Source: Acanthococcus lagerstroemiae (Eukaryota > Arthropoda > Insecta > Hemiptera > Eriococcidae). Taken from it: a DNA stretch of 64,000 bases. Below the pieces are notes generated by a model. The model had not been told where the DNA came from and searched no databases. It worked only from the letters and a program-made list of their open reading frames with translations. The stretch is from positions 29,848,603-29,912,602 of the forward strand of contig CM063112.1 in the NCBI GenBank assembly GCA_031841125.1, written 5' to 3'. Position numbers and translations under genes: made by a program. Positions within the stretch are counted from its first letter, which is position 1, and every line of letters begins with the position of its first letter. Shown here piece by piece: positions 28,376-54,870 of this stretch.

Positions 28376-28870
28376 CATTGGGTACCTCCCTGTTCGACAT
28401 AAATTTCAATTTCGATAAATTCATGACCAGGCTGTGTTCATTTTTTGCTATCAGTGCAATGTCACCTGCAAACCTAAGGTTGTTTAAATTTTTGCCCGTA
28501 ATTCTTATACCTACGCTTTCCCATTCCAGTTCCCTGAATATTTGTTCCAATACGCAATTAAAAGGGTTTGGGGATAGTGGGTCCCCATGTTTTACCCTTC
28601 TTTTGATAGAGAGGTTCTCACCCATTAGTCAGTCTTAACAGAGGCAGTCGAGTGACCGTATCGATGGACGAGAATTTCTATGATTCTCCTAGGTACACCT
28701 TGTGCCGCCAGGACCTGCCATAGTTACTCGTGGTAAATCGAGTCGTTCGCTTTATTGAAGTCGATAAACATTACCCACATTTCCATATTGTATTCTCTGG
28801 TTATATCAGTCAGTTGATTTAGAGTTTATATATGGTCTATAGTGGAAGTTTTTCTGAATCCGCCTTGAAT
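28376..28870 (-). mobile_element. Left-tip RT fragment (mirror of 53,990-54,486)
   Basis: The minus strand reads GGFRKTSTIDHI-like, a decayed FIDFNKANDS-type block, then GENLSIKRRVKHGDPLSPNP, LEQIFRELEWESVGIR and LNNLRFAGDIALIAKNEHSL. The second catalytic Asp of the usual A-D-D is retained but the first is Gly. The arm ends inside the post-catalytic region at 28,376. Stops occur before the block starting at 28,625. This copy differs from the right-tip copy by about 8 bases in ~280. Confidence 0.85.
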
Positions 28871-29339
28871 AGTATGGAAAAATTCTCAAAATGTTCGAAA
28901 ATTTAAAAAAAATGGAAAAATGGGATAACCACATTTTCTTCCTGAATGTTTATCGCTGAGCTCGAATTCGCTGTCCGAATTTGGCACTGACCTTCCAGTG
29001 CCGGTGCCGAAATACGATTAAAAATTCTGTTACATTGATACTAAGTGTCGAAAACTGTGTGCGGATCGATTTTGTTAGAAGTAGTCGTCTTAACTAATCC
29101 ACCCCCCCCCCCTAACCAGAAGAACAGAAGGGATAATTTTTGTATAACTAATAAAAATGATTACGACTCTGACTGAGCAGGTGGAAAGAAGCACAAATTT
29201 CGAAGGTGAAATAGGAACATGAAACAAGAACAGAATCGTACCTTTGATGTATTATATTTACTAACAAATTGAACATGCGAAACTCAAAATTATAACAACA
29301 GGTTACGATGAATTTTAGGAAAAATCAGAATTTGCTGGT

Positions 29340-29735
29340 CTTCGGTGTTTGCACAGAAGAAGCGGTTCCACAATCAACTGAGAGGTCTGTGTAGAATTTC
29401 GAAAATATGATCTTTCAATCAGAAACCGTAAAAATAAGTTTTCAGTAGGTATTAAAATTCAGAGGGATTCAAGAAAATTGGTGAAATATGAAATTAATGC
29501 ATTCTATTATCCAGAACAGAGTAACTACGACGAGATACAGATTTCTAAAGCCCATGAAAATCGAAATTACATACCGCATTCCAGTAACTATTTGGGAAAG
29601 TCGACAGATTCAAACTTTCAGGGAGAGAATTTGTATCGAAGCAGCGATTCCACGAATGGACGGCAAGGTTTGGTTTGCAGCATCAAAATACGAGGGGAAG
29701 ATATAAAATCTAATGAAAAATGAAATTAATTCTAT
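29340..29735 (+). other. Open frames of unknown nature, mirrored at 50,748-51,122 and 53,184-53,540
   Basis: In the right arm the mirrored minus frame is 124 codons long, beginning HRRSGSTINCEVCIEFRKYD. In the second tandem copy a one-base deletion shortens and shifts it to 118 codons. In the left arm stops cut the same region to 82 codons. An overlapping 72-codon frame contains IPRMDGKVWFAASK(Y/F)EGKI. I recognise neither. The stop codons on the left argue against a maintained gene. Confidence 0.35.
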
Positions 29736-30107
29736 CTGTAAGAATATAAATCAAGCTAATGAAAAATAAAAATATTAGGTATAATTTGAAACACACTATC
29801 CAAACCTGTGGAATGGCATTGGCCCCGTCAGTAAGTTTCGGAATTCTGTTTCAATGCAACTGCATCTGTTAAGATACTTCAAAGAAACCGAGGCTCAAAA
29901 TTCTCACAAAATGCGATAAGAAAGTTTCGTGGATCATCAGGTTCTCCCAAATTTGGTATTAATATGTATTATAGTTCCATTGTATCTTGAGAACCGTGGC
30001 ATTCACAGTTTAGGGGAGGGGGACGTGTAATAAATTCATCAGTAAACCGAATATAGATATTTTATTGATTTTCAAGGTTACCTATCAATTTGATTCAACT
30101 TGAAAAT

Positions 30108-30471
30108 TGAGGCACTTTGATTAGGGAGGAGTGAAGCTCAAGTTCGAAAAAGTTGAAACATTGGATGTCATTTTTGGGTTCTCGAGTTCTAGAATCCTAA
30201 ATGTCAAGACTGAGTTCCGCGACTGGTATATACTGGTTGAAAAAAGGGGTCATTTGCATCACTTCTGTTTGCTGAAGATGGTGAGATTAAAAAAAAATCA
30301 ATGGAAAAACGGATTTCGGGGGGACGTTCAGCCCCTCAGGAGACGATTCTACGAGACAACTGTACATGCCAAATTCTTCTCTATCCGAATCTTCTTGCAT
30401 TTATTTTGTAATCAACCCGAACCCGAACTATAAACGGTGACCTTTCTCCTTATTCAAACAGAACTGCGTAT
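30108..30471. other. Left-arm-only 364-bp segment
   Basis: The right arm reads straight through CAACTTGAAAAT|GTAAGTAAAAA (reverse complement of 50,351-50,380). The left arm has 364 bp between the same flanks. Inside is a 100-codon plus frame (30,131-30,433) with no recognised motif. At most AT or T is duplicated at the borders and there are no inverted ends. It is either an insertion on the left or a deletion on the right. Confidence 0.7.
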
Positions 30472-30599
30472 GTAAGTAAAAATAACAATTCTAGATTGAA
30501 TAGATATATTTATGGAAAGTACACTGCCAAAAGCGTTTGATATTACTACCTAAAGAGTGGCATTAAGAACTATAACTGTAATGGTGCTGAGTAGTAATA

Positions 30600-31080
30600 A
30601 CATAAATACTTCATAATAGTATGCAGAAAATGAACAATATTTCTATCGACATATTATCGATAGCTCGTGCTTGCTGTCATGCAACTGTTATGAATCAGAC
30701 CTATAAGACTGATAAGGTGTTAAAATGACTTGACGCAAGTAAAAATACCGCAAGCCAATTATATTGAAATATGTACATAGTGACGCGCGGGAGCTGAAAA
30801 ACATCGAAAATCTCTACTCCGAGAGGGCCTCTAAAAGATACAATAGTGAAATAAGAATCCTAATAAAAATTTCTATCAACATATTATCGATAGCTCGGCG
30901 TTTTTAAACACTAATTGCTGTCGTCATTTTCAGTAACGATAATTAATCAAGAATATACGATTGATTAATTAGGACGTTAAATGACTTGAACAAGGTAAAA
31001 AAATGTCCCGCGCTGATTGTATCGAAATATACAGCGATGCGGGAAGCTGAAAAAGAAAATTAGTAACACATACATAAAAA
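30600..31080. repeat. Spacer repeat with CTATCGA-N7-TCGATAG dyads (left, outer)
   Basis: Two related ~230-bp units each begin with the dyad CTATC(G/A)A-N7-TCGATAG (30,643-30,663 and 30,873-30,893). They continue through ACTTGA(C/A)…CCGC…TATTGAAATAT-like text. They are mirrored at 49,756-50,260 and again, through the tandem duplication, at 52,175-52,680. A third diverged unit lies at 33,760-34,080. Confidence 0.7.
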
Positions 31081-31139
31081 TTAGAAATAAGTACCTAAAA
31101 TAGCGGGGCATGCAGGACTGAAATTCGTTAAGTAGACAC

Positions 31140-31745
31140 CGACACAGATGACAACACTGATAAAGATGACTGCCTCGACAAAGACAAATACACCAGCAAA
31201 GTCAACAACACCGACGAAGACAACACCGACAAGGATGAAAACATTGATTAAGACAACAAAATCACTAAAGAAACAAAAACACCAACCAAGACAACAGGGA
31301 GACCAAGACGACATCATCGATAAAGACAACACCAACCAAGACAACACAGAGACCAAGATGACACCGACAAAGATAACAAAAACAACCAAGACGACATCTT
31401 TGATAAAGACAACACCAACCAAGACAACACAGAGACCAAGATGACACCGACAAAGATAACAAAAACAACCAAGACGACATCTTTTGATAAAGACAACACA
31501 GAGACCAAGATGACACCGACAAAGATAACAAAAACAACCAAGACGACATCTTTTGATAAAGACAACACAGAGACCAAGATGACACCGACAAAGATAACAA
31601 AAACAACCAAGACGACATCTTTGATAAAGACAACACCAACCAAGACAACACAGAGACCAAGATGACACCGACAAAGATAAAAACAACCAAGACGACATCT
31701 TTGATAAAGACAACACCAACCAAGAACACACAGAGACCAAAACGA
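31140..31745 (+). repeat. 18-bp AC-rich minisatellite with ~75-bp higher-order unit (left, outer)
   Basis: The array is built from variants of AACACCRACYAAGAWGAC. From 31,325 it is organised in about six higher-order units of 72-84 bp around GATAAAGACAACACCAACCA and ACAACCAAGACGACATCTTT. Because the period is a multiple of three it stays open in several frames on both strands (154 to 219 codons on the minus strand). Those frames are repeat by-products. The mirror at 49,150-49,700 has fewer higher-order units. Confidence 0.85.
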
Positions 31746-33580
31746 CACTATACTAACATAGGTGAACCGTCGCCCCTGGTAATATATATGTAGTATATCA
31801 AAATTAAAAGGAACTTATGTATCGGCAGGGCATTGTCGGATTCAAAGTCAGTACCCCTAGGATAGGTGAAAAACTCCCACCTACAACCCCCCGCAGAAAT
31901 ATAAATAAATATTATAGTATACCTCCCATTAAAGTAAATTATGAATCTGTGGGGCACACACCCGCTAAAAAATATTTGTAAATGTTAATAAACTATAAAA
32001 TAAATTATGTATTGGTAGGGCATCATCAGCCCAAAGTAAATACCCACTAACATAGGCGAAAACTCACACCTATAATCCCCATCAGAAAAATAAAAATAGT
32101 ATACTCGTAACTAAAAGTAAATTATGAATTGGTCAGGCATCATCGGCCCAAAGTGGATACCCACTAAAACATAGGTGAAAAGCTCTCACCTGATCCCAAG
32201 CTGAACAATAAATATTATAGTATAACTAAACTAAAAGTAAATTATGTATTGGTGGGGCATTATCGGCCCAAAATCGGCACACAGTAACCCAAAAATATAA
32301 CTATCGCAGGTGAAAAATCACACCAATAACCACTAGCTGAAGAATAAATCTAAACTAAAAGTTAATTATGTGGCATCATCGGCACAAAACCCACTAAGGT
32401 AGGTGGAAACTCACACCTAAAATCCCAAGTTGGAAAAGAAATATTATAGTACAGCCAAACTACAAGAAAAGTATGTATCGGTGAGGCATCATTGAGCTCA
32501 AGTTGAAGCCACTAACATAGGTTAAAACTCACACCTAGTCCCAAGTTGAAAAATAAATATTATAGTATATCTAAACTAAAAGTAAATTATGTATCAGTGG
32601 GGCAACGTCGGCCCAAAGTCAATACCCACTCAGGTAGGTGGAAACTCATACCTATAATCCCAAGTTGAAAAAGAAATATTACAGTACAGCCAAACTAAAA
32701 GAAAATTATGTATCGGTGAGGCATCATCGGGCGTAAGTTGAAAGCCGCTAACATAGGTGAAAACTCACACTTCATCCCAAGCTGAGAAATAAATATTATA
32801 ATATATCTAAACTAAAGGTAAATTATGTATCAGTGGGGCATCATCGGCCCAAAGTCAATGGTAGGTGGAAACTCGCACCTATAATCCCAAACTGAGTATA
32901 CAGCAAAAAGAAAATTAGGTATCAGTGATGCATCACTGGGCTCAAGTTGATAGCCACTAACATAGGTGAAAACTCATACCTAATCCCAAGCTTAAAAATG
33001 AATATAGTATAATCTAAACTAAAAGTTAATTATGTATGAGTGGGGCATCGTCGGTCCAAGGTCAATACCCACTCAGGTAGGTGGAAACTCACACCTATAA
33101 GCCCAAGTTGAAAAAGAAATATTATAGTACAGCCAAACTAAATGTAAATTATGAATCAGTTGGGCATCATTGTCCCAAAGTCGGGACCACTAGCATAGAT
33201 GAAAAATCACAAATACAACCCCCAATTGAAAAATAAAGGTGAATAAACTATAAAACAAAGTATATGTCGGTAGGGCATCATTGGCCCAAAGTGGCTACTC
33301 ACTAACATAGATGAAAACTCATACCTAATCCCAAGCTGAAAAATAAATATTATATTAAAAGTGAATTATGTATTGGTGGGACATCATCGACCCAAAGCCG
33401 GCACACAGCATCGCATGTATATAATTATTACCTGTGAAAAATCACACCTACTATCCCAAGCTAAAAAATGAAAATTATAGTAAATACCAATCTGAACTAA
33501 CAGTAAATCATGTATCACAGGGGCATCAGCGGCCCAAAATCCGTATCCACTAACAAAGGTGAAAATTGGTACAGTCGCAA
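31745..33580. repeat. ~115-bp satellite array (left, outer)
   Basis: About 15 diverged units share ATTATGTATCAGTGGGGCAT, CATCGGCCCAAAGT, CCACTAACATAGGTG, ACTCACACCT, ATCCCAAG(C/T)TGAAAAA and AAACTAAAAGTAAATTATG. Every full unit contains a small dyad AGGTG…CACACCT. Unit lengths vary by indels. The mirror is at 47,455-49,150 and is about 131 bp shorter. Confidence 0.9.
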
Positions 33581-33629
33581 GGAGAAAAACATCGAAAAGA
33601 GGCCGGAGAAAAAACTTATTTCCCCCTTT

Positions 33630-34570
33630 CTTAGCCTTACATTAATAAAAAGTGATATCCTACATTTGCTGCATTCAAACTGAGAATTTGGAACTTTTTC
33701 AGAATATAATGAAAATTCTAACAATCTGTACATGTTGAAAAGTCGATTGCAATGAGCTGAAAAACATCGAAAATCTCTGCTCCGAGAGGGTATTTAAAAG
33801 ATACAATAGTAAAATAATAATCCTAATAAAACTTCTATAGTAAGTAATCATCTACTATGTTTCTATCGACATTTTATCGATAGCTCGGCGTTTTAGAACA
33901 CCAATTGCTGTCGTCATTTAACGATAATTAATCAAGAATATACGATTAATTAATTAGGACGTTAAAATGACTTGAACATGGTAAAAAAATGTCCCGCACC
34001 AATTATATCGAAATATACAGTGATGCGGGAAGCTGAAAAAGAAAATTAGTAGCACATACATAAAAATTGGAAATAATTACCTAAAATAGCGATGCATCCG
34101 GGATAGAAATTCTTCAAGTACATAAAATTATAGTATAAAGATGACACCACAACACCTGACAAAGATAATAACCTTGACAAAGACGAAAACACCAGCAAAG
34201 CCAACAACACCAACAAAGACAACACCGACAATGATGAAAACATCGATTAAGACGACATAATCGGCAAAGATAAAAACACTAACCAAGACAACACCGAGAG
34301 CAAGATGATACTGACAAAAATAACAAAAACAACCAAGACGACATCATTGATAAAGACAACACCAACCAAGAACACACAGAGACGAAAATGGCACTATACT
34401 AACATAGGTGAACTGCCGCCCCTGGTAATATACATAGTATAGTGTATCAAAATAAAAAGGAAGCTATGCATCAGCGGCGCATCATCGGCTTCAAAGTCAG
34501 TACTCCCTAAGATAGGTGAAAAACTCCCACCTGCAACCCACCGCAGAAAAATAAATAGTAGTAATGTAAA
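33630..34570. repeat. Spacer, dyad unit, short minisatellite and satellite piece (left, middle)
   Basis: 33,640-33,756 (GTGATATCCTACATTT…AGTCGATTGCAAT) recurs at 35,935-36,040. 33,760-34,080 is a third dyad spacer (33,863-33,883). 34,140-34,390 repeats the 18-bp minisatellite and 34,390-34,570 a satellite piece. The succession of spacer, minisatellite and satellite repeats the order of 30,600-33,580, so the arm has a higher-order organisation. Mirrored at 46,460-47,400. Confidence 0.75.
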
Positions 34571-34679
34571 CTATGTTACACTGACACTCCTAAGGCTTAG
34601 CTGAAGAAACTGTTGCTATATTGGCTTAAATTCTAACACCATCATCCCAAACAGTTAATAAAATCATTTTAAAACCCTT

Positions 34680-35300
34680 CCACAGTACTTCTACCAGCAG
34701 AAGAAGGAATACAGGGATTTGATCACAAGATGGATTCAAAGGAATAGACTGGATTGCGACTGGAATCATCCTATAAAGAGACTTTCTGCCAGTAGCTTGT
34801 TGGAATCATTCCATAACAGAACTTTCGACCAACAATGGTTGCTACTGGAATCGTCCCAGGACTTTCTACCAGCACAAGAAAGATTGTCAGGAACACATCA
34901 CGACCGGAATCATCCCATGAAACTTTTTGCCAGTAGCTTGCTGGAATCATCCCATTACAGGACTTTCAACCAACAGTGGTTGCTACTGGAATCGTTTTGA
35001 GACTTTCCACCGGCATAAAGTGGATTTTAAGGAGACAACCGGAATCGTCCCGTGAAACTTTCTGCCAGTAGCTTGCTGGAATCATCCCATTACAGGACTT
35101 TCAACCAACAGTGGTCGCTACTGGAATCGTTTCGAGACTTTCCACCGGTATAAAGAGGATTTTAAGGAGCACAGATCAGATCATAACTGGAATCATTGAG
35201 ATTTTCTACCAGTAGCTTATTGGAATCATCCCATTATAGAACTTTCAACCAGTAGTAATCCCTACTGGTACCTACTAAAATTATCCTGCTACAGACCTCG
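34680..35300. repeat. GGAATCATCC tandem array (left, middle)
   Basis: Units alternate CTACTGGAATCGTCCCAGGA, CTTTCTACCAG, GGAATCATCCCATTACAGGA, CTTTCAACCAACAGTGGTTG and CCAGTAGCTTGCT, giving ~45-bp basic and ~133-bp higher-order units. The left arm has one ~133-bp unit more than the mirror at 45,880-46,360. Confidence 0.85.
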
Positions 35301-35309
35301 TTAAGAACA

Positions 35310-35940
35310 TTTATATAGTGTTTCAAAATAAAAAGGGACTTATGTATCAGCGGGGCATCATCGGCTTCAAAGTCAGTACCCCCTAAGATAGTTGAAAAAC
35401 TCCCACCTACAACCCCCCCCCCCGCCGCAGAAAAAAAGTATTATAGTATACCTTCCATTAAAGTAAATTATGAATCAGTGGGGCATTATCGGCTTGCAGT
35501 CGGCACCCTCTAGCATAGGTGAAAACTCAACTACAAACCCCAGCTAAAAAATATTTGTAAATGTGAATAAACGATAAAATAAATTATGTATTGGTAGGGG
35601 ATCATCAGCCCAAAATGGGTACAACTCACACCTAGTCCCCAGTTGATAGGTAAATATTATAATACATCTAAACTAAAAGTAATTTATATATCAGTAAATA
35701 TTATAATACATCTAGACTAAAAGTAATTTATGTATCAGTGGGGCATCATCGGCCCAAAGTCAAAACCCACTCAGGTAGGTGGAAACTCACACCTATAATC
35801 CCAAGTTGAAAAAGAAATATTATAGTACAGCCAAACTAAAAGAAAGTTATGTATCAGTGGGGCACCATTGGCCCAAAGTGAATACCCACTAACATAGGTA
35901 GAAACTCACACCTGTAATCCCTTTCAAACATTAATAAAAA
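35310..35940. repeat. ~115-bp satellite array (left, middle)
   Basis: Same satellite family as 31,745-33,580, about five units, with a C10 run near 35,406. Mirrored at 45,230-45,850 with a G run near 45,745. Confidence 0.85.
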
Positions 35941-36040
35941 GTGATATCCTACATTTACTGCATTCAAACTGAGATTTTGGATTTTCTTTAGAATATAATG
36001 AAAATTCTAACAATCTGTACATATTGAGAAGTCGATTGCA

Positions 36041-37016
36041 ATCGTCCAACGTGAACTAATTCTCCTGCAGACAAGCGGCCGCTGACTGACACTGACTAAA
36101 TTAAGTAGACCTATGAACAAAGACTGGGGGAATGCGATGGCAGTTTGCATTAACAGTTTGCAGGATGTCAAGCTCAGCTGAACCAAACCCACATCGCTCT
36201 AGACTGTAGCCGGCATCCATCAAAACCGCTAAGTAGTCATTTCCAGTTTAAGAGCCAGTTAGAACACAGCGGTAGGAGCGGCCGGAGCTACCCGAGACTG
36301 TCCCAGAACTGCAAGACTCATGCCGCAAGGACCAACATTGGCCAGCGTTCATGGACTTGGTCCACAATCCAGAAGCAAGAACACACAGCTACGTTACGTG
36401 CATGAGCTACCTCCCATTAAGTTGCTGTCAGTATGTTAAGTAAGTTAGGGCCGCAACATTGGGTTACAGCCAGACCATGTTATGTTGACCTACAGTACTG
36501 ATGTGTCTGCTAACAGGACGTGAGACGAACCAGAACTGGCGTTCACGTTACCTTAGCCACTGTGCCAGGACGACTGACCCCCCCAGGCCTGGAATACACC
36601 TTAACTCGCCTAGTCAGATATATGTGCGCGGGTACGTACAGCTAGGTTAGGGCTGTCAGTGACCGCTGTAAATTTATTGAAACTAGAGCTACAATTTCAA
36701 TTCTGTCAGACTCTAAATAAGAATGTTGTTGTTGAAAATGTTCTAGCGACTCAAACCTATATAAGCCTATAGAAATATCTCGTTACATTGTAAGTTGTAA
36801 GATCTATCAGATGATTTAGATAGGATCTTGTTAGTTATGTAAATGTAAGATTGTCTTATAAGAGTTGATTTGCTGAGCAGTATCAGTGTTGCTCATGTTA
36901 ACCCCATAAATGTTTTCTGTTATGTTGTAACGAGATACACAGATCAAGAGTCTACCATAAACAAAATACAATACAATAGACAATAGCAACCGACTTCATA
37001 AGTAATAGTATTCACA
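36041..37016. other. ~1-kb unique segment, LTR-like features (left); mirror 44,150-45,125
   Basis: This segment interrupts the satellite and is not internally repetitive. It follows a copy of the GTGATATCC…GATTGCAA sequence, at the point where the copy at 33,640 continues differently. It contains CCTATATAAGCC near 36,760 and GTTATGTTGTAACGAGATAC near 36,920, with a tract rich in AAAATACAATACAATAGACA. Such features would fit a promoter-bearing LTR, but no TG…CA ends with a target duplication or primer-binding site could be fixed. The arms are nearly identical here. Confidence 0.35.
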
Positions 37017-37885
37017 TTATTTAATCAATCTATAAGTAAATTAAGTATCATTGAGGCATCATTGGCCTGCGGTCCGTACACACTATCCCAAAAATATAAT
37101 TATCGCATACTCATAGTCCCAATTGGAAATATAAAAATTATAATATATCTAGCTGAATGTAAATAATGTATGGGCGGGGCATCATCAGCTCACAGTTGGT
37201 AGCCACTAAGATATTTGAAAAATCATAACAAGCCATAGTTAAAAGGCATCATTGGCCCAATGTCGCTACTCCTTAACATAGCTGAAAATTTCCACATACA
37301 ATTCAAGGCTGTAAAATAAAATCATGTAGGTCCAAAAATCGGTACGCACCATCCTAAGAATATAATTATCGCAGATAGAAACTCACAACTGTAGTCCCAA
37401 GCTTAAAAATTATAGTATAATATCTAAACTAAAATTAAATTACGTATTAGTGGGGCATTATCGGCCCAATGTTGGTACCTCCTAAACATGGCTGAAAATT
37501 CCCACCTACATTCTATGCTATTAAAAATTAATGGAAGTCTAACTAGAAGTTAATGATGTACTGCTGGGACATTACTGGTCCCTCACACCCACAGTCCCAA
37601 GTGTAAAAAATAAAAATTATAGTACTTATTTGTATATCTAAACTACAGGTAAATTAGATATTAGTGGGGCATCATCGGCCCAAAGTTGATACTCACTAAC
37701 ATGGTTGGAAATTCCCACCTACATTCCAACGCTATAAAATAAAAATTATGGGTCAAACTATTAGCAAGGCCTAAAGTTTGTACACACACTCCTAATAACA
37801 CGTGGACCCACTAACATAGGTGGAAAATCACACCTGTGAGCATCATCCCAAGCTAAAAAATGAAAATTATTTTAAACCAATCTCA
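37017..37885. repeat. ~115-bp satellite array, diverged (left, inner)
   Basis: Satellite units with GGGGCATCATCGGCCCAAAG, CCACTAACATAGGTGGAAA and CCCAAGCT recur, more diverged than in the outer array. Mirrored at 43,290-44,140. Confidence 0.8.
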
Positions 37886-37940
37886 GAGTAAGTTAGGCAG
37901 CGACGCTCTGTTCCCGAGATATACTTGAAAATGTGGCAGT

Positions 37941-38366
37941 ATGGGGAAAAAGTCAGGATCAACAACACTGACAAATACAACAACACTGACGAATATGACA
38001 ACAGTAACAAAGATAACAGTGACAAAAACAACAACATTGATAAGGGCAATAACTACTTTGACAAAAAGGACAACACCGAAAATGACAACGTTGACAAAGA
38101 CAACAGAAATAAAAACCTCACCAATCAAGAAAACAACACCAACCAAGAAAACAACACTGACTAAGATGGCAACATCAAACAAGAAAAGAACACCGACCAA
38201 GATGACAATACCAACTAAGATGACAACACCAACTAAGAAGATAACACAGACCATAATGGCAACACCAACCAAGAAAACAACACCGACTAAGAAGACAACA
38301 CCAACTAAGATGACAACGCCAACCAAGAAGAAGACAACAATATGGACCAAGACAACACTACACTAA
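37941..38366 (+). repeat. 18-bp minisatellite with 141-codon Thr/Lys frame (left, inner)
   Basis: A regular 18-bp unit gives the six-residue repeat T-P-T-K-(K/M)-T. The plus frame is 141 codons and an overlapping minus frame is 155 codons of Val/Leu/Phe repeats. Both frames are also open in the mirrored copy (42,800-43,283) with only a few substitutions. There is no start context, no gene neighbours, and the period of 18 makes stop-free frames easy to obtain. I therefore annotate a minisatellite, not a gene. Confidence 0.8.
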
Positions 38367-38379
38367 CGTTGGTGAAAAC

Positions 38380-39430
38380 TCAATTCCAATTGAAAAATAG
38401 ACATTATAGTACATCAAAAGTATAAGTAAAATAGTATAACTAAACAAAAATATAGTACATATACATATCTAAACTAAAAGTAAATGAAGTATTATTGGGG
38501 CACCACTGCCGGAATGTTGGTACCCACTAACACGGATCACCACATACATTCCCAAGCAGTAAAATAAAAATCATGTTTAACTAAATAAGTTGTATATTGT
38601 AGGGGCATCATTGGCCCAAAGTTAATACCCACTAATATAGGTGAAAATGTACCTCCATCCCAAGCTAAAATGTAATAATTACCTTAAGGAATGTAAATGT
38701 AAACCAAGTTTTGGTAGAGTTCTATCAGCCCAATATGTGGCATCCAACTTAAGCCGAAAAGTAAATTATAGTTATATAAACTATGTTCCACTGATACTCC
38801 TGAGGCTCGACTGAAGAAACTGTTGCCTTATTGGCTTAAATTCTAATACCATCATCCCAAACAGTTAAAAAAATCATTTTAAAACCCTTCCACAGTACTT
38901 CTACCAGCAGAAGAAGGAATATAGGGATTTGATCACAAGATGGATTCAAAGGAATATACTGGATTGCGACTGGAATCATCCTATAAAGAGACTTTCTGCC
39001 AGTAGCTTGTTGGAATCATTCCATAATGGAACTTTCAACCAACAATGGTTGCTACTGGAATCGTCCCAGGACTTTCTACCAGCGCGAGAAAGATTTTAAA
39101 GAACACAGATCACAACCGGAATCGTCCCATATGAAACTTTCTGCCAGTAGCTTGCTGGAATCATCCCATTACAGGACTTTCAACCAACAGTGGTTGCTAC
39201 TGGAATCATTTCGAGACTTTCCACCGGTATAAAGAGGATTTTAAGGAGCACAGATCAGATCATAACTGGAATCATTGAGATTTTCTACCAGTAGCTTGTT
39301 GGAATCATCCCATTATAGAACTTTCAACCAGTAGTAATCCCTACTGGCACCAACTAAAATTATCCTGCTACAGACCTTGTTAAGAACATTTGTTGCTACT
39401 GGAATCATGTCAGGACCCAAGATTCTTAAG
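38380..39430. repeat. Satellite piece and GGAATCATCC array (left, inner)
   Basis: 38,400-38,760 holds diverged satellite units. 38,880-39,420 repeats the GGAATCATCC array of 34,680-35,300, and even its upstream flank (GTTGCC/TATATTGGCTTAAATTCTAA-like) is shared. Mirrored at 41,740-42,790. Confidence 0.8.
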
Positions 39431-40581
39431 ATGACAAAGAGGCATAGAATTGTGACCGGTAACATCCTATAATAGTTTGATTTACAAACTACCCCTCCCC
39501 CACCCCCAAATAACTCAGACCTGACAATTTAAATCTATTAAATACCATTAAAATGTTTTAAAAATGAACCAAGAAGGCACAGTCGAGTGACCCAGGAACA
39601 TTACTAGGATGATGCAGATAAGAGTACAATCAGTAAACGCACACAGCGGACATACAATCAACCAAATATAACAGTCAGATTACAGGCAAGCAATCATTTA
39701 AATTGAAAAACTTACTCAGACATGAAACATCAGCGTGGACTCCATTTCATCACAACTCAGCAAATTTGAACATCTAGGCATATCCAATCCAAAAGGCACA
39801 TCACTTGAACGCGAACATTTGCAACATCTTACTTGAACACGAACATTTACACATATATCGGTTCCGAAGTGCACGCGACATACAGACATTTAAACATAAC
39901 TTGCACGCAGCACCTCTCAAGAATTTCTGAATCCTATCTGGCGGCGATGAAATTTGGCATCTTTCGAGTAACCGAGCCCCCAAAATTCACCTCGTTTCTC
40001 ATTGGCTTTGATTATGGAGCAACCAGAATAGTGGGGATAACAACCTTCCAACCAGAGACACGTACATACGTCATAAAAATCAGAGAAAAAACCACCCGAC
40101 TGGACAAGTATAATTTATTGTAAATAAAATTCCCCAAATCCGTGAAGCGGTAGGTACATAATGACGGCGAGGACAATGGGTCTAACTTTCTCTTGAGTAA
40201 CAAAAAACCAAATTGCTTATTAAATAACGTAACATATTGACAGCCGAAAAGGAATAAATTAGGGAGACAATGGCATTTCGACGAAGCCGAGCACAAATCA
40301 ACAAAATGTTCGAGTCTCAAAAGGTCATACCGGGGAATTTTGAAACTACTTGCTCCGGGTGTAAGTATCACGAAATACGGAAATAATTTTGGAGTACAAG
40401 TATGTTCAAAAAATATCACGAGTGAGACTAACAGCGCAAAACTGTGTGAGTCGTAATGCGGCTACTAACGCCGTCATGAATCTTTAGCAAAATTTCATCA
40501 ACATTTACTTTCAACGACCAAAAGAATTTGTCTCAATGTTGATATGATTGGGCAAGCAATTTGATCTTGGTCAAAACAAGA
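39430..40581. other. Unique inner sequence of the left arm
   Basis: There are no tandem repeats here. The longest frame is 135 codons on the minus strand (40,012-40,419), matched by 40,745-41,152 plus on the right with three residue changes and no stops. An overlapping 96-codon frame lies at 39,833-40,123 plus (mirror 41,041-41,331 minus). Neither resembles a family I know. Coding status is unproven. Confidence 0.5.
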
Positions 40582-40582
40582 A

Positions 40583-44700: not shown

Positions 44701-47700
44701 AACCCAATGTTGCGGCCCTAACTTACTTAACATACTGACAGCAACTTAATGGGAGGTAGCTCATGCACGTAACGTAGCTGTGTGTTCTTGCTTCTGGATT
44801 GTGGACCAAGTCCATGAACGCTGGCCAATGTTGGTCCTTGCGGCATGAGTCTTGCAGTTCTGGGACAGTCTCGGGTAGCTCCGGCCGCTCCTACCGCTGT
44901 GTTCTAACTGGCTCTTAAACTGGAAATGACTACTTAGCGGTTTTGATGGATGCCGGCTACAGTCTAGAGCGATGTGGGTTTGGTTCAGCTGAGCTTGACA
45001 TCCTGCAAACTGTTAATGCAAACTGCCATCGCATTCCCCCAGTCTTTGTTCATAGGTCTACTTAATTTAGTCAGTGTCAGTCAGCGGCCGCTTGTCTGCA
45101 GGAGAATTAGTTCACGTTGGACGATTGCAATCGACTTCTCAATATGTACAGATTGTTAGAATTTTCATTATATTCTAAAGAAAATCCAAAATCTCAGTTT
45201 GAATGCAGTAAATGTAGGATATCACTTTTTATTAATGTTTGAAAGGGATTACAGGTGTGAGTTTCTACCTATGTTAGTGGGTATTCACTTTGGGCCAATG
45301 GTGCCCCACTGATACATAACTTTCTTTTAGTTTGGCTGTACTATAATATTTCTTTTTCAACTTGGGATTATAGGTGTGAGTTTCCACCTACCTGAGTGGG
45401 TTTTGACTTTGGGCCGATGATGCCCCACTGATACATAAATTACTTTTAGTCTAGATGTATTATAATATTTACTGATATATAAATTACTTTTAGTTTAGAT
45501 GTATTATAATATTTACCTATCAACTGGGGACTAGGTGTGAGTTGTACCCATTTTGGGCTGATGATCCCCTACCAATACATAATTTATTTTATCGTTTATT
45601 CACATTTACAAATATTTTTTAGCTGGGGTTTGTAGTTGAGTTTTCACCTATGCTAGAGGGTGCCGACTGCAAGCCGATAATGCCCCACTGATTCATAATT
45701 TACTTTAATGGAAGGTATACTATAATACTTTTTTTCTGTGGCGGGGGGGGGGGGGTTGTAGGTGGGAGTTTTTCAACTATCTTAGGGGGTACTGACTTTG
45801 AAGCCGATGATGCCCCGCTGATACATAAGTCCCTTTTTATTTTGAAACACTATATAAATGTTCTTAACGAGGTCTGTAGCAGGATAATTTTAGTAGGTAC
45901 CAGTAGGGATTACTACTGGTTGAAAGTTCTATAATGGGATGATTCCAATAAGCTACTGGTAGAAAATCTCAATGATTCCAGTTATGATCTGATCTGTGCT
46001 CCTTAAAATCCACTTTATGCCGGTGGAAAGTCTCAAAACGATTCCAGTAGCAACCACTGTTGGTTGAAAGTCCTGTAATGGGATGATTCCAGCAAGCTAC
46101 TGGCAAAAAGTTTCATGGGATGATTCCGGTCGTGATGTGTTCCTGACAATCTTTCTTGTGCTGGTAGAAAGTCCTGGGACGATTCCAGTAGCAACCATTG
46201 TTGGTCGAAAGTTCTGTTATGGAATGATTCCAACAAGCTATTGGCAGAAAGTCTCATCATAGGATGATTCCAGTCGCAATCCAGTCTATTCCTTTGAATC
46301 CATCTTGTGATCAAATCCCTGTATTCCTTCTTCTGCTGGTAGAAGTACTGTGGAAGGGTTTTAAAATGATTTTATTAACTGTTTGGGATGATGGTGTTAG
46401 AATTTAAGCCAATATAGCAACAGTTTCTTCAGCTAAGCCTTAGGAGTGTCAGTGTAACATAGTTTACATTACTACTATTTATTTTTCTGCGGTGGGTTGC
46501 AGGTGGGAGTTTTTCACCTATCTTAGGGAGTACTGACTTTGAAGCCGATGATGCCCCGCTGATACATAGCTTCCTTTTTATTTTGATACACTATAATATG
46601 TATATTACCAGGGGCGGCAGTTCACCTATGTTAGTATAGTGCCATTTTCGTCTCTGTGTGTTCTTGGTTGGTGTTGTCTTTATCAATGATGTCGTCTTGG
46701 TTGTTTTTGTTATTTTTGTCAGTATCATCTTGCTCTCGGTGTTGTCTTGGTTAGTGTTTTTATCTTTGCTGATTATGTCGTCTTAATCGATGTTTTCATC
46801 ATTGTCGGTGTTGTCTTTGTTGGTGTTGTTGGCTTTGCTGGTGTTTTCGTCTTTGTCAAGGTTATTATCTTTGTCAGGTGTTGTGGTGTCATCTTTATAC
46901 TATAATTTTATGTACTTGAAGAATTTCTATCCCGGATGCATCGCTATTTTAGGTAATTATTTCCAATTTTTATGTATGTGCTACTAATTTTCTTTTTCAG
47001 CTTCCCGCATCACTGTATATTTCGATATAATTGGTGCGGGACATTTTTTTACCATGTTCAAGTCATTTTAACGTCCTAATTAATTAATCGTATATTCTTG
47101 ATTAATTATCGTTAAATGACGACAGCAATTGGTGTTCTAAAACGCCGAGCTATCGATAAAATGTCGATAGAAACATAGTAGATGATTACTTACTATAGAA
47201 GTTTTATTAGGATTATTATTTTACTATTGTATCTTTTAAATACCCTCTCGGAGCAGAGATTTTCGATGTTTTTCAGCTCATTGCAATCGACTTTTCAACA
47301 TGTACAGATTGTTAGAATTTTCATTATATTCTGAAAAAGTTCCAAATTCTCAGTTTGAATGCAGCAAATGTAGGATATCACTTTTTATTAATGTAAGGCT
47401 AAGAAAGGGGGAAATAAGTTTTTTCTCCGGCCTCTTTTCGATGTTTTTCTCCTTGCGACTGTACCAATTTTCACCTTTGTTAGTGGATACGGATTTTGGG
47501 CCGCTGATGCCCCTGTGATACATGATTTACTGTTAGTTCAGATTGGTATTTACTATAATTTTCATTTTTTAGCTTGGGATAGTAGGTGTGATTTTTCACA
47601 GGTAATAATTATATACATGCGATGCTGTGTGCCGGCTTTGGGTCGATGATGTCCCACCAATACATAATTCACTTTTAATATAATATTTATTTTTCAGCTT

Positions 47701-49155
47701 GGGATTAGGTATGAGTTTTCATCTATGTTAGTGAGTAGCCACTTTGGGCCAATGATGCCCTACCGACATATACTTTGTTTTATAGTTTATTCACCTTTAT
47801 TTTTCAATTGGGGGTTGTATTTGTGATTTTTCATCTATGCTAGTGGTCCCGACTTTGGGACAATGATGCCCAACTGATTCATAATTTACATTTAGTTTGG
47901 CTGTACTATAATATTTCTTTTTCAACTTGGGCTTATAGGTGTGAGTTTCCACCTACCTGAGTGGGTATTGACCTTGGACCGACGATGCCCCACTCATACA
48001 TAATTAACTTTTAGTTTAGATTATACTATATTCATTTTTAAGCTTGGGATTAGGTATGAGTTTTCACCTATGTTAGTGGCTATCAACTTGAGCCCAGTGA
48101 TGCATCACTGATACCTAATTTTCTTTTTGCTGTATACTCAGTTTGGGATTATAGGTGCGAGTTTCCACCTACCATTGACTTTGGGCCGATGATGCCCCAC
48201 TGATACATAATTTACCTTTAGTTTAGATATATTATAATATTTATTTCTCAGCTTGGGATGAAGTGTGAGTTTTCACCTATGTTAGCGGCTTTCAACTTAC
48301 GCCCGATGATGCCTCACCGATACATAATTTTCTTTTAGTTTGGCTGTACTGTAATATTTCTTTTTCAACTTGGGATTATAGGTATGAGTTTCCACCTACC
48401 TGAGTGGGTATTGACTTTGGGCCGACGTTGCCCCACTGATACATAATTTACTTTTAGTTTAGATATACTATAATATTTATTTTTCAACTTGGGACTAGGT
48501 GTGAGTTTTAACCTATGTTAGTGGCTTCAACTTGAGCTCAATGATGCCTCACCGATACATACTTTTCTTGTAGTTTGGCTGTACTATAATATTTCTTTTC
48601 CAACTTGGGATTTTAGGTGTGAGTTTCCACCTACCTTGGGTTTTCCCCCATAATTAACTTTTAGTTTAGATTTATTCTTCAGTTAGTGGTTATTGGTGTG
48701 ATTTTTCACCTGCGATAGTTATATTTTTGGGTTACTGTGTGCCGATTTTGGGCCGATAATGCCCCACCAATACATAATTTACTTTTAGTTTAGTTATACT
48801 ATAATATTTATTGTTCATCTTGGGATCAGGTGAGAGCTTTTCACCTATGTTTTAGTGGGTATTTACTTTGGGCTGATGATGCCCTACCAATACATAATTT
48901 ATTTTATAGTTTATTAACATTTACAAATATTTTTTAGCGGGTGTGTGCCCCACAGATTCATAATTTACTTTAATGGGAGGTATACTATAATATTTATTTA
49001 TATTTCTGCGGGGGGTTGTAGGTGGGAGTTTTTCACCTATCCTAGGGGTACTGACTTTGAATCCGACAATGCCCTGCTGATACATAAGTTCCTTTTAATT
49101 TTGATATACTACATATATATTACCAGGGGTGGCGGTTCACCTATGTTAGTATAGT
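41740..49155. repeat. Right-arm tandem arrays, mirror of 31,745-39,425
   Basis: In order: GGAATCATCC array (41,745-42,290), satellite (42,400-42,790), 18-bp minisatellite (42,800-43,215), satellite (43,290-44,140), ~1-kb unique segment (44,150-45,125), satellite (45,230-45,850), GGAATCATCC array (45,880-46,360), satellite piece (46,460-46,640), minisatellite (46,645-46,900), dyad spacer (46,950-47,280, dyad 47,150-47,170), and the long satellite array (47,455-49,150). Two arrays are each about 131-133 bp shorter than on the left. Confidence 0.85.
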
Positions 49156-49700
49156 GTCGTTTTGGTCTCTGTGTGTTCTTGGTTGGTGTTGTCTTTATCA
49201 AAGATGTCGTCTTGGTTGTTTTTGTTATCTTTGTCGGTGTCATCTTGGTCTCTGTGTTGTCTTTATCAAAATGATCGTCTATTATGTTTTTGTTATCTTT
49301 GTCGGTGTCATCTTGGTCTCTGTGTTGTCTTGGTTGGTGTTGTCTTTATCAAAAGATGTCGTCTTGGTTGTTTTTGTTATCTTTGTCGGTGTCATCTTGG
49401 TCTCTGTGTTGTCTTGGTTGGTGTTGTCTTTATCAAAGATGTCGTCTTGGTTGTTTTTGTTATCTTTGTCGGTGTCATCTTGGTCTCTGTGTTGTCTTGG
49501 TTGGTGTTGTCTTTATCGATGATGTCGTCTTGGTCTCCCTGTTGTCTTGGTTGGTGTTTTTGTTTCTTTAGTGATTTTGTTGTCTTAATCAATGTTTTCA
49601 TCCTTGTCGGTGTTGTCTTCGTCGGTGTTGTTGACTTTGCTGGTGTATTTGTCTTTGTCGAGGCAGTCATCTTTATCAGTGTTGTCATCTGTGTCGGTGT
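49154..49700 (-). repeat. 18-bp minisatellite with ~75-bp higher-order unit (right, outer)
   Basis: Mirror of 31,140-31,745 with roughly four higher-order units instead of six. One unit has drifted (AAAATGATCGTCTATTATG near 49,268). Long frames on both strands are repeat by-products. Confidence 0.8.
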
Positions 49701-51913
49701 CTACTTAACGAATTTCAGTCCTGCATGCCCCGCTATTTTAGGTACTTATTTCTAATTTTTATGTATGTGTTACTAATTTTCTTTTTCAGCATCCCGCATC
49801 GCTGTATATTTCGATACAATCGGCGCGGGACATTTTTTTACCTTGTTCAAGTCATTTAACGTCCTAATTAATCAATCGTATATTCTTGATTAATTATCGT
49901 TACTTAAAATGACGACAGCAATTGGTGTTTAAAAACGCCGAGCTATCGATAATATGTTGATAGAAATTTTATTAGGATTCTTATTTCACTATTGTATCTT
50001 TTAGAGGCCCTCTCGGAGTAGAGATTTTCGATGTTTTTCAGCTCCCGCGCGTCACTATGTACATATTTCAATATAATTGGCTTGCGGTGTTTTTACATGC
50101 GTCAAGTCATTTTAACACCTTATCAGTCTTATAGGTCTGATTCATAACAGTTGCATGACAGCAAGCACGAGCTATCGATAATATGTCGATAGAAATATTG
50201 TTCATTTTCTGCATACTATTATGAAGTATTATGTTATTACTACTCAGCACTATTACAGTTATAGTTCTTAATGCCTCGCTTTAGTTAGTAATATCAAACG
50301 CTTTTGGCAGTGTACTTTCCACAAATATATCTATTCAATCTAGAATTGTTATTTTTACTTACATTTTCAAGTTGAATCAAATTGATAGGTAACCTTGAAA
50401 ATCAATAAAATATCTATATTCGGTTTACTGATGAATTTATTACACATCCCCCTCCCCTAAACTGTGAATGCCAGGGTTCTCAAGATACAATGGAACTATA
50501 ATACATATTAATACCAAATTTGGGAGAACCTGATGATCCACGAAACTTTCTTATCGCATTTTGTGAGAATTTTGAGCCTCGGTTTCTTTGAAGTATCTTA
50601 ACAGATGCAGTTGCATTGAAACAGAATTCCGAAACTTACTGACGGGGCCAATGCCATTCCACAGGTTTGGATAGTGTGTTTCAAATTATACCTAATTATT
50701 TTTATTTTTCATTAGCTTGATTTATATTCTTACAGATAGAATTAATTTCATTTTTCATTAGATTTTATATCTTCCCCTCGAATTTTGATGCTGCAAACCA
50801 AACCTTGCCGTCCATTCGTGGAATCGCTGCTTCGATACAAATTCTCTCCCTGGAAGTTTGAATCTGTCGACTTTCCCAAATAGTTACTGGAATGCGGTAT
50901 GTAATTTCGATTTTTATGCGCTTTAGAAATCTGTATCTCGTCGTAGTTACTCTGTTCTGGATAATAGAATGCATTAATTTCATATTTCACCAATTTTCTT
51001 GAATCCCTCTGAATTTTAATACCTACTGAAAACTTATTTTTACGGTTTCTGATTGAAAGATCATATTTTCGAAATTCTATACAGACCTCGCAGTTGATTG
51101 TGGAACCGCTTCTTCTGTGCAAACACCGAAGACCAGCAAATTCTGATTTTTCCTAAAATTCATCGTAGCCTGTTGTTATAATTTTGAGTTTCGCATGTTC
51201 AATTTGTTAGTAAATATAATATATCAAAGGTACGATTCTGTTCTCGTTTCATGTTCCTTTCACCTTCGAAATTTGTGCTTCTTTCCACCTGCTCAGTCAG
51301 TCGTAATCATTTTTATTAGTTATACAAAAATTATCCCTTCTGTTCTTCTGGTTAGGGGGGTGGATTAGTTAAGACGACTACTTTCAACAAAATCGATCCG
51401 CACACAGTTTTCGACACTTAGTATCAATGTAACAGAATTTTTAATCGTATTTCGGCACCGGCACATTCGGACAGCGAATTCGAACTCAGCGATAAACATT
51501 CAGGAAGAATATGTGGTTCTCCCATTTTTCCATTTTTTTAAAATTTTCGAACATTTTGAGAATTTTTCCATACTATTCAAGGCGGATTCAGAAAAACCTT
51601 CACTATAGACCATATATAAACTCTAAATCAACTGACTGATATAACCAGAGAATACAATATGGAAATGTGGGTAATGTTTATCGACTTCAATAAAGCGAAC
51701 GACTCGATTTACCACGAGTAACTATGGCAGGCCCTGGCGGCACAAGGTGTACCTAGGAGATCATAGAAATTCTCGTCCATCGATACGGTCACTCGACGGC
51801 CTCTGTTAAGACTGACTAATGGGTGAGAACCTCTCTATCAAAAGAAGGGTAAAAGATGGGGACCCACTATCCCCAAACCCTTTTAATTGCGTATTGGAAC
51901 AAATATTCAGGGA
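49495..51913. repeat. 2.4-kb tandem duplication, copy 1 (right arm only)
   Basis: Bases 49,495-51,913 are repeated head-to-tail at 51,914-54,331. The junction ATTCAGGGA|TCTTGGTTGG joins the RT fragment to the minisatellite with no microhomology. Copy 1 ends in the RT text L-E-Q-I-F-R, so the chimeric frame at 51,887 runs from RT-flank into minisatellite. Spacer dyads lie at 49,943-49,963 and 50,172-50,192. Confidence 0.93.
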
Positions 51914-54331
51914 TCTTGGTTGGTGTTGTCTTTATCGATGATGTCGTCTTGGTCTCCCTGTTGTCTTGGTTGGTGTTTTTGTTTCTTTAGTGATTTTGTT
52001 GTCTTAATCAATGTTTTCATCCTTGTCGGTGTTGTCTTCGTCGGTGTTGTTGACTTTGCTGGTGTATTTGTCTTTGTCGAGGCAGTCATCTTTATCAGTG
52101 TTGTCATCTGTGTCGGTGTCTACTTAACGAATTTCAGTCCTGCATGCCCCGCTATTTTAGGTACTTATTTCTAATTTTTATGTATGTGTTACTAATTTTC
52201 TTTTTCAGCATCCCGCATCGCTGTATATTTCGATACAATCGGCGCGGGACATTTTTTTACCTTGTTCAAGTCATTTAACGTCCTAATTAATCAATCGTAT
52301 ATTCTTGATTAATTATCGTTACTTAAAATGACGACAGCAATTGGTGTTTAAAAACGCCGAGCTATCGATAATATGTTGATAGAAATTTTATTAGGATTCT
52401 TATTTCACTATTGTATCTTTTAGAGGCCCTCTCGGAGTAGAGATTTTCGATGTTTTTCAGCTCCCGCGCGTCACTATGTACATATTTCAATATAATTGGC
52501 TTGCGGTGTTTTTACATGCGTCAAGTCATTTTAACACCTTATCAGTCTTATAGGTCTGATTCATAACAGTTGCATGACAGCAAGCACGAGCTATCGATAA
52601 TATGTCGATAGAAATATTGTTCATTTTCTGCATACTATTATGAAGTATTATGTTATTACTACTCAGCACTATTACAGTTATAGTTCTTAATGCCTCGCTT
52701 TAGTTAGTAATATCAAACGCTTTTGGCAGTGTACTTTCCACAAATATATCTATTCAATCTAGAATTGTTATTTTTACTTACATTTTCAAGTTGAATCAAA
52801 TTGATAGGTAACCTTGAAAATCAATAAAATATCTATATTCGGTTTACTGATGAATTTATTACACATCCCCCTCCCCTAAACTGTGAATGCCAGGGTTCTC
52901 AAGATACAATGGAACTATAATACATATTAATACCAAATTTGGGAGAACCTGATGATCCACGAAACTTTCTTATCGCATTTTGTGAGAATTTTGAGCCTCG
53001 GTTTCTTTGAAGTATCTTAACAGATGCAGTTGCATTGAAACAGAATTCCGAAACTTACTGACGGGGCCAATGCCATTCCACAGGTTTGGATAGTGTGTTT
53101 CAAATTATACCTAATTATTTTTATTTTTCATTAGCTTGATTTATATTCTTACAGATAGAATTAATTTCATTTTTCATTAGATTTTATATCTTCCCCTCGA
53201 ATTTTGATGCTGCAAACCAAACCTTGCCGTCCATTCGTGGAATCGCTGCTTCGATACAAATTCTCTCCCTGGAAGTTTGAATCTGTCGACTTTCCCAAAT
53301 ATTACTGGAATGCGGTATGTAATTTCGATTTTTATGCGCTTTAGAAATCTGTATCTCGTCGTAGTTACTCTGTTCTGGATAATAGAATGCATTAATTTCA
53401 TATTTCACCAATTTTCTTGAATCCCTCTGAATTTTAATACCTACTGAAAACTTATTTTTACGGTTTCTGATTGAAAGATCATATTTTCGAAATTCTATAC
53501 AGACCTCGCAGTTGATTGTGGAACCGCTTCTTCTGTGCAAACACCGAAGACCAGCAAATTCTGATTTTTCCTAAAATTCATCGTAGCCTGTTGTTATAAT
53601 TTTGAGTTTCGCATGTTCAATTTGTTAGTAAATATAATATATCAGAGGTACGATTCTGTTCTCGTTTCATGTTCCTTTCACCTTCGAAATTTGTGCTTCT
53701 TTCCACCTGCTCAGTTAGTCGTAATCATTTTTATTAGTTATACAAAAATTATCCCTTCTGTTCTTCTGGTTAGGGGGGTGGATTAGTTAAGACGACTACT
53801 TTCAACAAAATCGATCCGCACACAGTTTTCGACACTTAGTATCAATGTAACAGAATTTTTAATCGTATTTCGGCACCGGCACATTCGGACAGCGAATTCG
53901 AGCTCAGCGATAAACATTCAGGAAGAATATGTGGTTCTCCCATTTTTCCATTTTTTTAAAATTTTCGAACATTTTGAGAATTTTTCCATACTATTCAAGG
54001 CGGATTCAGAAAAACCTTCACTATAGACCATATATAAACTCTAAATCAACTGACTGATATAACCAGAGAATACAATATGGAAATGTGGGTAATGTTTATC
54101 GACTTCAATAAAGCGAACGACTCGATTTACCACGAGTAACTATGGCAGGCCCTGGCGGCACAAGGTGTACCTAGGAGATCATAGAAATTCTCGTCCATCG
54201 ATACGGTCACTCGACGGCCTCTGTTAAGACTGACTAATGGGTGAGAACCTCTCTATCAAAAGAAGGGTAAAAGATGGGGACCCACTATCCCCAAACCCTT
54301 TTAATTGCGTATTGGAACAAATATTCAGGGA
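51914..54331. repeat. 2.4-kb tandem duplication, copy 2 (right arm only)
   Basis: Copy 2 differs from copy 1 by only a handful of changes seen by eye: a one-base deletion near 53,300 (AAATAGTTACTGG to AAATATTACTGG), A to G near 53,645, C to T near 53,716, and A to G near 53,902. It carries the dyads at 52,362-52,382 and 52,591-52,611 and continues into the intact RT tip. Confidence 0.93.
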
Positions 54332-54870
54332 ACTGGAATGGGAAAGCGTAGGTATAAGAATTACGGGCAGAAATTTAAACAACCTTAGGTTTGCAGATGA
54401 CATTGCACGGATAGCAAAAGATGAACACAGCCTGGTCATGAATTTATCGAAATCGAAATTTATGTCGAACAGGGAGGGACCCAATGAAATTTGGCTAGAG
54501 GGAGCAAGAATGTCTCGTGTACAGGAGTACAAATATCTGGATCAGACAACGAAATTCGAAACAATATGGAAGGAGTTATCAGGGAAAGGATTGATAATGC
54601 ATGGAAGGCTTTTTGGGCGCACAAATTTATCTTTGAAAAGAAAATAAAACTATAGGTCTAAAAATGAAAGTACTCGAGAGCTGTGTGGTCCCAACTCTCA
54701 CCCGTGGGTCTCAAGACGAGATTCTAGGATACCTAGGCTTTTGCTGGGCACAGACAGCGAGGGAGCGCGAAAGATGGAGAAAGGTGACAGAAACGTATGC
54801 CCAACGGTGGGCAGATTAGGTGGTGACTTACACCGCAACTTCGTGTGCAACACCTAATAAATAAAAATGA
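53990..54870 (+). mobile_element. Right-tip RTE-like RT and 3' end
   Basis: The frame opens with QGGFRKTFTIDHI and MFIDFNKANDSIYHE, interrupted by stops. From 54,237 it continues 136 codons with NLSIKRRVKDGDPLSPNPFN, LRFADDIARIAKDEHSLVMN (intact DD) and RVQEYKYLDQ. The thumb (LESCVVPTLT) and a compressed tail (ERWRKVTETYAQRWAD) lead to a stop and a 3' end with CACCTAATAAATAAAAAT near 54,868. The tail lies outside the palindrome, so this copy is continuous across the right border. Confidence 0.85.

What the first reader, a model, noticed from the sequence alone, without database searches (positions are those of the whole stretch)
28376..54486. Giant near-perfect palindrome of about 26 kb with no spacer
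Two arms of about 12.2 and 13.9 kb mirror each other around base 40,582 with one unpaired base. Natural palindromes of this size usually have a spacer, because spacer-free ones are unstable during replication. It could be a giant foldback-type element, an inverted duplication from a broken or hairpin-capped end, or an artefact (two haplotypes joined head-to-head, a template-switch chimera, or an uncut hairpin read). Independent substitutions, array-length differences and one-sided events in the arms make a simple read-duplication artefact less likely. They do not exclude joining of two alleles.
Basis: partly seen in the sequence, partly recalled or inferred. Interest (0 to 1): 0.9.

Follow-up and report, generated by a model that had tools for sequence, protein, structure and literature searches.

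The report
Spacerless 26-kb palindrome beside LINE fragments
A stretch of an unidentified animal genome reads almost the same on both strands for 26,000 bases, most likely because a broken end was copied backwards on itself, and the two halves have since changed separately; whether it is real or an assembly error can only be settled with the raw reads.

Summary
The palindrome is there. Left arm 28376-40581 and right arm 40583-54486 mirror each other around one unpaired A at 40582. The right arm is longer mainly because of a 2.4-kb tandem duplication. Divergence is uneven (0.18% to 1.67% by block). All eight differences that could be polarised split equally between the arms (4 and 4).

Two facts bear on origin. 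First, the right arm's outer end is no element boundary: it lies in a LINE reverse-transcriptase frame that runs on across 54486, whereas the left copy is cut inside that frame at 28376. Second, a direct repeat (27246-27649 and 54867-55152, about 10% diverged) starts on the right just after what looks like the LINE's 3' tail; on the left it lies upstream of a weak LINE endonuclease match. I read this as one old LINE with a long target-site duplication, now split by the palindrome. This is inference; the flanks also share four other dispersed-repeat matches.

I favour an in-place inverted duplication (hairpin, sister fusion or template switch at the axis, 12.2 kb copied back and rejoined), with partial homogenisation of the arms later. 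A foldback transposon is not supported. An artefact cannot be excluded: no reads and no own genome were reachable.

The parts
28376..40581 (-). left arm of the palindrome (taken as the inverted copy), cut at 28376 inside the LINE reverse-transcriptase frame
40582..40582 (.). axis: single unpaired A; the 40 bases around it fold as DNA into an 18-bp stem with a 3-base loop (AAT)
40583..54486 (+). right arm of the palindrome (taken as the original copy)
49495..51913 (+). first copy of the 2.4-kb tandem duplication, right arm only
   Evidence: the copies differ by 3 substitutions and 1 gap
51914..54331 (+). second copy of the 2.4-kb tandem duplication, right arm only
30108..30469 (.). 362 bp in the left arm only, missing from both right copies; two shared bases (AT) at its edges
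30791..39391 (+). repeat-rich body of the left arm: direct copies of an 18-bp minisatellite, a ~118-bp satellite and a ~135-145-bp array; no match to the flanks at E 1e-4, apart from a 21-base word shared with 55197-55217
27246..27649 (+). left copy of the flanking direct repeat (inferred target-site duplication of a LINE), with an insert of about 120 bp; edges set by eye on the alignment
28106..28325 (+). fragment resembling the start of a LINE endonuclease (inferred 5' half of the split LINE)
   Evidence: Pfam Exo_endo_phos on 28106-28249, E 0.006, 16.8 bits against a cut-off of 24.5; the rest from the translation by eye
28326..28375 (.). about 50 bp of unknown origin at the outer junction; no microhomology at 28375/28376; longest exact match elsewhere in the window 12 bases, as in control stretches
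53998..54866 (+). reverse-transcriptase part and presumed 3' tail of the LINE; the frame is continuous across 54486. Start and 3' end set by eye
   Evidence: 54234-54647: RVT_1 E 0.00011, 22.4 bits, below the cut-off of 29.6; alignment to a reverse transcriptase over residues 3-108; translation
54867..55152 (+). right copy of the flanking direct repeat, starting just after the presumed LINE 3' tail

Best explanation
A real chromosomal inverted duplication made in place. Inferred steps: an old LINE (with a target-site duplication of about 285 bp) came to hold a repeat-rich block between its endonuclease and reverse-transcriptase parts, losing its middle. A broken end or stalled fork at the present axis turned back on itself, by hairpin priming, sister-chromatid fusion or template switch, leaving a one-base centre. 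About 12.2 kb was copied outward in inverted orientation, ending inside the reverse-transcriptase frame, and the copied end was joined to the LINE's 5' part at 28375/28376 without microhomology. Shown by sequence: substitutions on both arms, a 2.4-kb tandem duplication on the right only, array stretches on the left only. Inferred: the middle 5.5 kb was later homogenised by arm-to-arm gene conversion.
For: Arms and one-base axis. The frame is continuous through 54486 on the right and cut at 28376 on the left. The direct repeat starts on the right just after an A+T-rich LINE-like tail; on the left it lies upstream of an endonuclease-like fragment in the same orientation. Eight of eight arm differences in two in-arm modules could be polarised: 4 changed on the left, 4 on the right. 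Substitutions are more unevenly spread than in any of 3001 shuffles on each of three measures, with 10 in 5,546 sites between blocks at 0.92% and 1.02% (block edges chosen after seeing the data). Fold-back priming at short inverted repeats near breaks makes palindromic duplications in yeast, mainly without Sae2 or Mre11 nuclease (PMC10622511, passages).
Against: No read, depth or second assembly was available. A long, nearly spacerless palindrome should be fragile (PMC7999016, passages), yet 0.92% divergence next to the axis implies it has lasted; two joined alleles would explain that more easily. All 21 sequenced junctions of human inverted duplications had spacers of 766-70,466 bp (PMC3907307, passages). 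Uneven divergence also fits patchy heterozygosity. The flanking repeat could be two copies of a dispersed family: the flanks share four other repeat matches (103-330 bp, 73-86%, two direct and two inverted). The endonuclease match is below the Pfam cut-off, the LINE's ends were set by eye, and 285 bp is long for a target-site duplication (10-12 bp in the RTE element SR3, though up to several hundred for L1; PMC1291365, passages).
Confidence: 0.62

Rival explanations
1. Assembly artefact: a fold-back or chimeric molecule joined two alleles of one arm head to head, and a second misjoin or a structural allele explains the left breakpoint.
For: Fold-back reads are a documented long-read artefact that can tangle assembly graphs (PMC12870357, passages). 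Artificial palindromes arise in whole-genome-amplified libraries (PMC6218980 and PMC13265396, abstract starts only) and from erroneous scaffolding (PMC7953838, passages). A one-base centre and 0.2-1.7% patchy divergence are what two alleles joined by such a molecule would show.
Against: A single join predicts that the left flank mirrors the right flank beyond 54486. It does not: the only inverted matches between the flanks are 17125-17436/60810-61120 and 26473-26614/58337-58480, short and away from mirror positions. If the split-LINE reading is right, the left flank is the correct neighbour for this locus, which random misjoins would not give.
Confidence: 0.31
2. A giant foldback-type DNA transposon whose terminal inverted repeats meet in the middle.
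For: Arms rich in tandem repeats without a spacer recall foldback elements such as Tetris (PMC4079207, passages). The arm body has no match to the flanks at E 1e-4.
Against: The longest direct repeat at the two ends is 3 bases, against 8-10 bp in Tetris. The right arm does not end at 54486 but runs on in a reverse-transcriptase frame. No transposase among the 9 of 22 left-arm ORFs tested. Arms of 12-14 kb against up to 1,735 bp in Tetris.
Confidence: 0.04
3. The arms were separate inverted segmental copies that became neighbours later, by inversion or deletion of the DNA between them.
For: Repeat-rich regions rearrange often (general knowledge); the arms already hold several diverged direct repeat modules.
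Against: A deletion that happens to leave exactly one base between mirror-image ends is unlikely.
Confidence: 0.03

Closest known systems
Inverted duplications / fold-back inversions (human inverted duplications with terminal deletion; yeast hairpin-capped break products)
   Same: Inverted copy adjoining the original, second breakpoint joined to other sequence, possible fold-back priming at a short inverted repeat.
   Different: All 21 sequenced human junctions had spacers of 766 bp or more (PMC3907307, passages); here one base. Interstitial and 12 kb, where the human cases shown are Mb-scale and mostly terminal.
Sister-chromatid (U-type) fusion and breakage-fusion-bridge products
   Same: Predicts no spacer between the inverted copies (PMC3907307, passages).
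   Different: Here the outer junction appears to return to the same locus (inference); a terminal deletion could not be seen in 64 kb.
Human Y-chromosome palindromes
   Same: Long arms with stretches homogenised by conversion; multi-kilobase tracts are reported for P6 (PMC3723533, title and abstract start in the listing).
   Different: Arm similarity there exceeds 99.9% (same abstract start); they have spacers and many carry genes (recalled); here no gene was found among the ORFs tested and there is practically no spacer.
Foldback transposons (FB, Galileo, Tetris)
   Same: Long inverted repeats made of tandem subunits.
   Different: No target-site duplication, no element end on the right, arms about seven times as long as the longest in Tetris; a second copy could not be looked for.
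Palindromes reported in Folsomia candida and Adineta vaga assemblies
   Same: Inverted duplicated blocks on one scaffold in invertebrates (PMC5490193, PMC7953838, passages).
   Different: Those were found as collinear gene blocks; the second paper warns that its list includes misassemblies. This one has no gene among the ORFs tested and is symmetric at base level.

Membership tests
Chromosomal inverted duplication | inverted copy adjoining its original | tested here: met
Chromosomal inverted duplication | copy cut at an arbitrary point while the original runs on | tested here: met
   frame continuous across 54486, cut at 28376
Chromosomal inverted duplication | present in single DNA molecules at two copies per haploid genome | not testable with these tools
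Resection-loop fold-back duplication (human type) | single-copy spacer of hundreds of bases or more at the axis | tested here: not met
   one base
Foldback transposon | target-site duplication at the outer ends | tested here: not met
   longest direct repeat within 3 bases of both ends is 3 bases
Foldback transposon | inverted repeats end at element ends on both sides | tested here: not met
   right side continues in the reverse-transcriptase frame
Foldback transposon | several copies in the genome | not testable with these tools
   The genome search did not complete (eleven tries)
Conversion-maintained palindrome (Y type) | arms homogenised by gene conversion | tested here: inconclusive
   uneven divergence fits conversion or patchy heterozygosity
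Simple fold-back read artefact | arms identical apart from sequencing error | tested here: not met
   polarised changes on both arms, unit-length differences, outer block 1.67%
Simple fold-back read artefact | left flank mirrors right flank beyond the arms | tested here: not met
LINE target-site duplication (flanking direct repeat) | repeat abuts the LINE 3' end and the LINE 5' end, in the same orientation | tested here: inconclusive
   right copy starts at 54867, just after a presumed 3' tail set by eye; left copy lies about 460 bp upstream of a weak endonuclease match; the 5' end is unknown

The most novel reading that the evidence does not exclude
A natural 26-kb palindrome with a one-base centre has persisted in an animal chromosome long enough for its arms to diverge by 0.2-1.7%, with arm-to-arm conversion acting in the middle of the arms but little at the axis and outer ends; this would mean that this lineage replicates and repairs long spacerless palindromes without losing the centre.
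Probability: 0.4. Interest if true: 0.75.

Novelty: new variant of a known kind. Interest (0 to 1): 0.52.

Why it matters
Long palindromes without a spacer are expected to form hairpins and to break. A natural one that has survived would be a direct test case for how animal cells tolerate them and for how inverted duplications form at the base level. If it is an artefact, it is a cautionary example: allele differences, array-length differences and a tidy locus can make a false palindrome look real.

Tried and rejected
Foldback transposon: rejected for lack of a target-site duplication and of a right-hand end. Simple read duplication: rejected on polarised changes in both arms. Genes in the arms: 9 of the 22 left-arm ORFs of 75 aa or more listed were tested against Pfam (8, 1); none reached a curated cut-off. 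One is the reverse-transcriptase remnant (28320-28628, E 0.0003) and one a chance-level match (29382-29723, CfAFP, E 0.085). RNA families: none over the window at gathering scores or over 35900-37100 at E 0.1. A 149-aa ORF near the axis (40012-40461): 24 candidates, none significant. A 26-base pattern from beside the axis was absent from viral contigs and genome contigs, which may leave out the window's own genome. Origin of the ~50 bp at the outer junction: nothing; its longest exact match elsewhere is 12 bases, and 139 of 300 control stretches do as well or better. Literature: the listings (14 and 6 papers) show no title or abstract start that reports a spacerless palindrome of this size in an animal, and one search found no paper; most subscription papers are not held.

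They weaken the split-LINE reading, so I moved the best explanation from 0.64 to 0.62 and the artefact from 0.29 to 0.31.

Full report
What is there. The window holds an inverted repeat from 28376 to 54486, with arms of 12,206 and 13,904 bases. Its axis is one A at 40582; going outward, the first mismatches are at 43 and 149 bases. The 40 bases 40563-40602 fold as single-stranded DNA into an 18-bp stem with a three-base loop. The right arm has a 2.4-kb direct duplication (49495-51913 and 51914-54331), whose copies differ by three substitutions and one gap. The left arm alone has 362 bp at 30108-30469 and extra array stretches of 135, 117, 54 and 15 bp; whether each is a gain on the left or a loss on the right is not settled.

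How the arms differ. The inner alignment has 63 substitutions in 9,775 columns and the outer one 29 in 1,704. For the test of evenness I dropped 12 of the 63 inner substitutions, which sit in two clusters of array slippage, leaving 80 in 11,538 sites. By block of the left arm the rate is 0.92% (38081-40581), 0.18% (32400-38080), 1.02% (30470-32399) and 1.67% (28376-30107); the block edges were chosen after seeing the data. None of 3001 shuffles was as uneven on any of three measures that do not use these blocks (longest run without a substitution, fewest in 5.5 kb, chi-square over 24 bins). Conversion between arms would do this; so would patchy heterozygosity if the arms were alleles.

Direction of change. 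Each arm holds two related modules in direct orientation (34543-35312 and 38753-39391 on the left), so that one module can tell the older base in the other. All eight substitutions between arms in these modules could be polarised: four changed on the left, four on the right. The differences are therefore not errors in one copy of a single read.

What the arms are made of. The arm body is a series of diverged direct repeats: an 18-bp minisatellite, a satellite of about 118 bp and an array of about 135-145 bp. The left arm has no match to either flank at E 1e-4; a 21-base word of its arrays does occur in the right flank at 55197-55217. No gene and no transposase was found among the 9 of 22 left-arm ORFs tested.

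The outer ends. On the right, the ORF 54234-54647 (Pfam RVT_1, E 0.00011, below the cut-off) aligns with a reverse transcriptase over residues 3-108, that is, past 54486 (about residue 84), in one alignment. On the left the same frame, reversed, stops matching at 28376. So 54486 is not the end of an element; it is where the copying on the left stopped. There is no microhomology at 28375/28376, and the longest direct repeat at the two ends is three bases.

One LINE, split (inference). A direct repeat lies at 27246-27649 and 54867-55152 (28 differences in 275 aligned columns, some of them at the edges of a small insert that I left out). The right copy begins just after an A+T-rich stretch (AATAAATAAAA) that I take, by eye, for the LINE's 3' tail. 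The left copy lies about 460 bp upstream of a fragment whose translation resembles the start of a LINE endonuclease (Pfam Exo_endo_phos, E 0.006, below cut-off), in the same orientation. I read this as one old LINE with a long target-site duplication, whose two ends now flank the palindrome; I did not find its middle (the rest of the endonuclease and the start of the reverse transcriptase) beside either end. Against this, the flanks share four other repeat matches (10792-10988/58111-58306 and 18550-18652/61015-61117 direct, 17125-17436/60810-61120 and 26473-26614/58337-58480 inverted), so a dispersed family is a fair alternative. Target duplications of up to several hundred bases are mentioned for L1, and 10-12 bp for the RTE element SR3 (PMC1291365, passages). 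That the LINE is of the RTE kind is my own recognition of its motifs and comes from no call.

Mechanism. Fold-back priming at short inverted repeats near a break, and sister-chromatid fusion, both make inverted duplications (PMC10622511, passages). Human cases had spacers of 766-70,466 bp in all 21 sequenced junctions, and the absence of a spacer is what sister-chromatid (U-type) fusion predicts (PMC3907307, passages). The one-base centre here fits a short hairpin, a sister fusion or a template switch, and cannot choose among them. If the flanks are two ends of one LINE, the copied end was joined back to the same locus, which favours a local repair or replication event over a chromosome fusion.

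Artefact. Fold-back reads are common enough to disturb assemblies (PMC12870357, passages), and a published palindrome list is said by its authors to include misassemblies (PMC7953838, passages). A single such join would make the left flank mirror the right flank; it does not. Two joined alleles remain possible if there is also a structural allele or a second misjoin at 28376. The intact centre in a palindrome with old arms is, if anything, a point for the artefact, because long spacerless palindromes are expected to be unstable (PMC7999016, passages). I put the artefact at about 0.3.

Limits. The species is unknown; that it is an animal is inferred from the LINEs and the named matches. The whole-genome search did not complete in eleven tries, so copy number, other copies of the arms and an alternative haplotype were not tested.

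Noticed in passing
27480-27596: About 120 bp inserted in the left direct repeat, flanked by what looks by eye like an 8-bp duplication (TAGGGGAT); absent from the right copy.
   Followed up: partly
233-1003, 22372-22752, 24330-24635, 63102-63446: Further reverse-transcriptase remnants: the first two reach the Pfam RVT_1 cut-off, the last two fall below it. 62207-62827 gave no Pfam family but aligns weakly with the right-arm LINE frame (E 4e-4).
   Followed up: partly
55197-55217: A 21-base word in the right flank identical to part of the arm arrays at 34316-34336.
   Followed up: no
18070-18473: Six diverged copies of a ~70-bp tandem repeat rich in TTCGAC motifs.
   Followed up: no
23508-25094: Inverted repeat pair of about 300 bp at 87% identity around about 1 kb of other sequence, possibly a small DNA transposon.
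   Followed up: no
17125-17436 and 60810-61120: A dispersed repeat of about 310 bp shared in inverted orientation by both flanks, with three further shared repeats.
   Followed up: no
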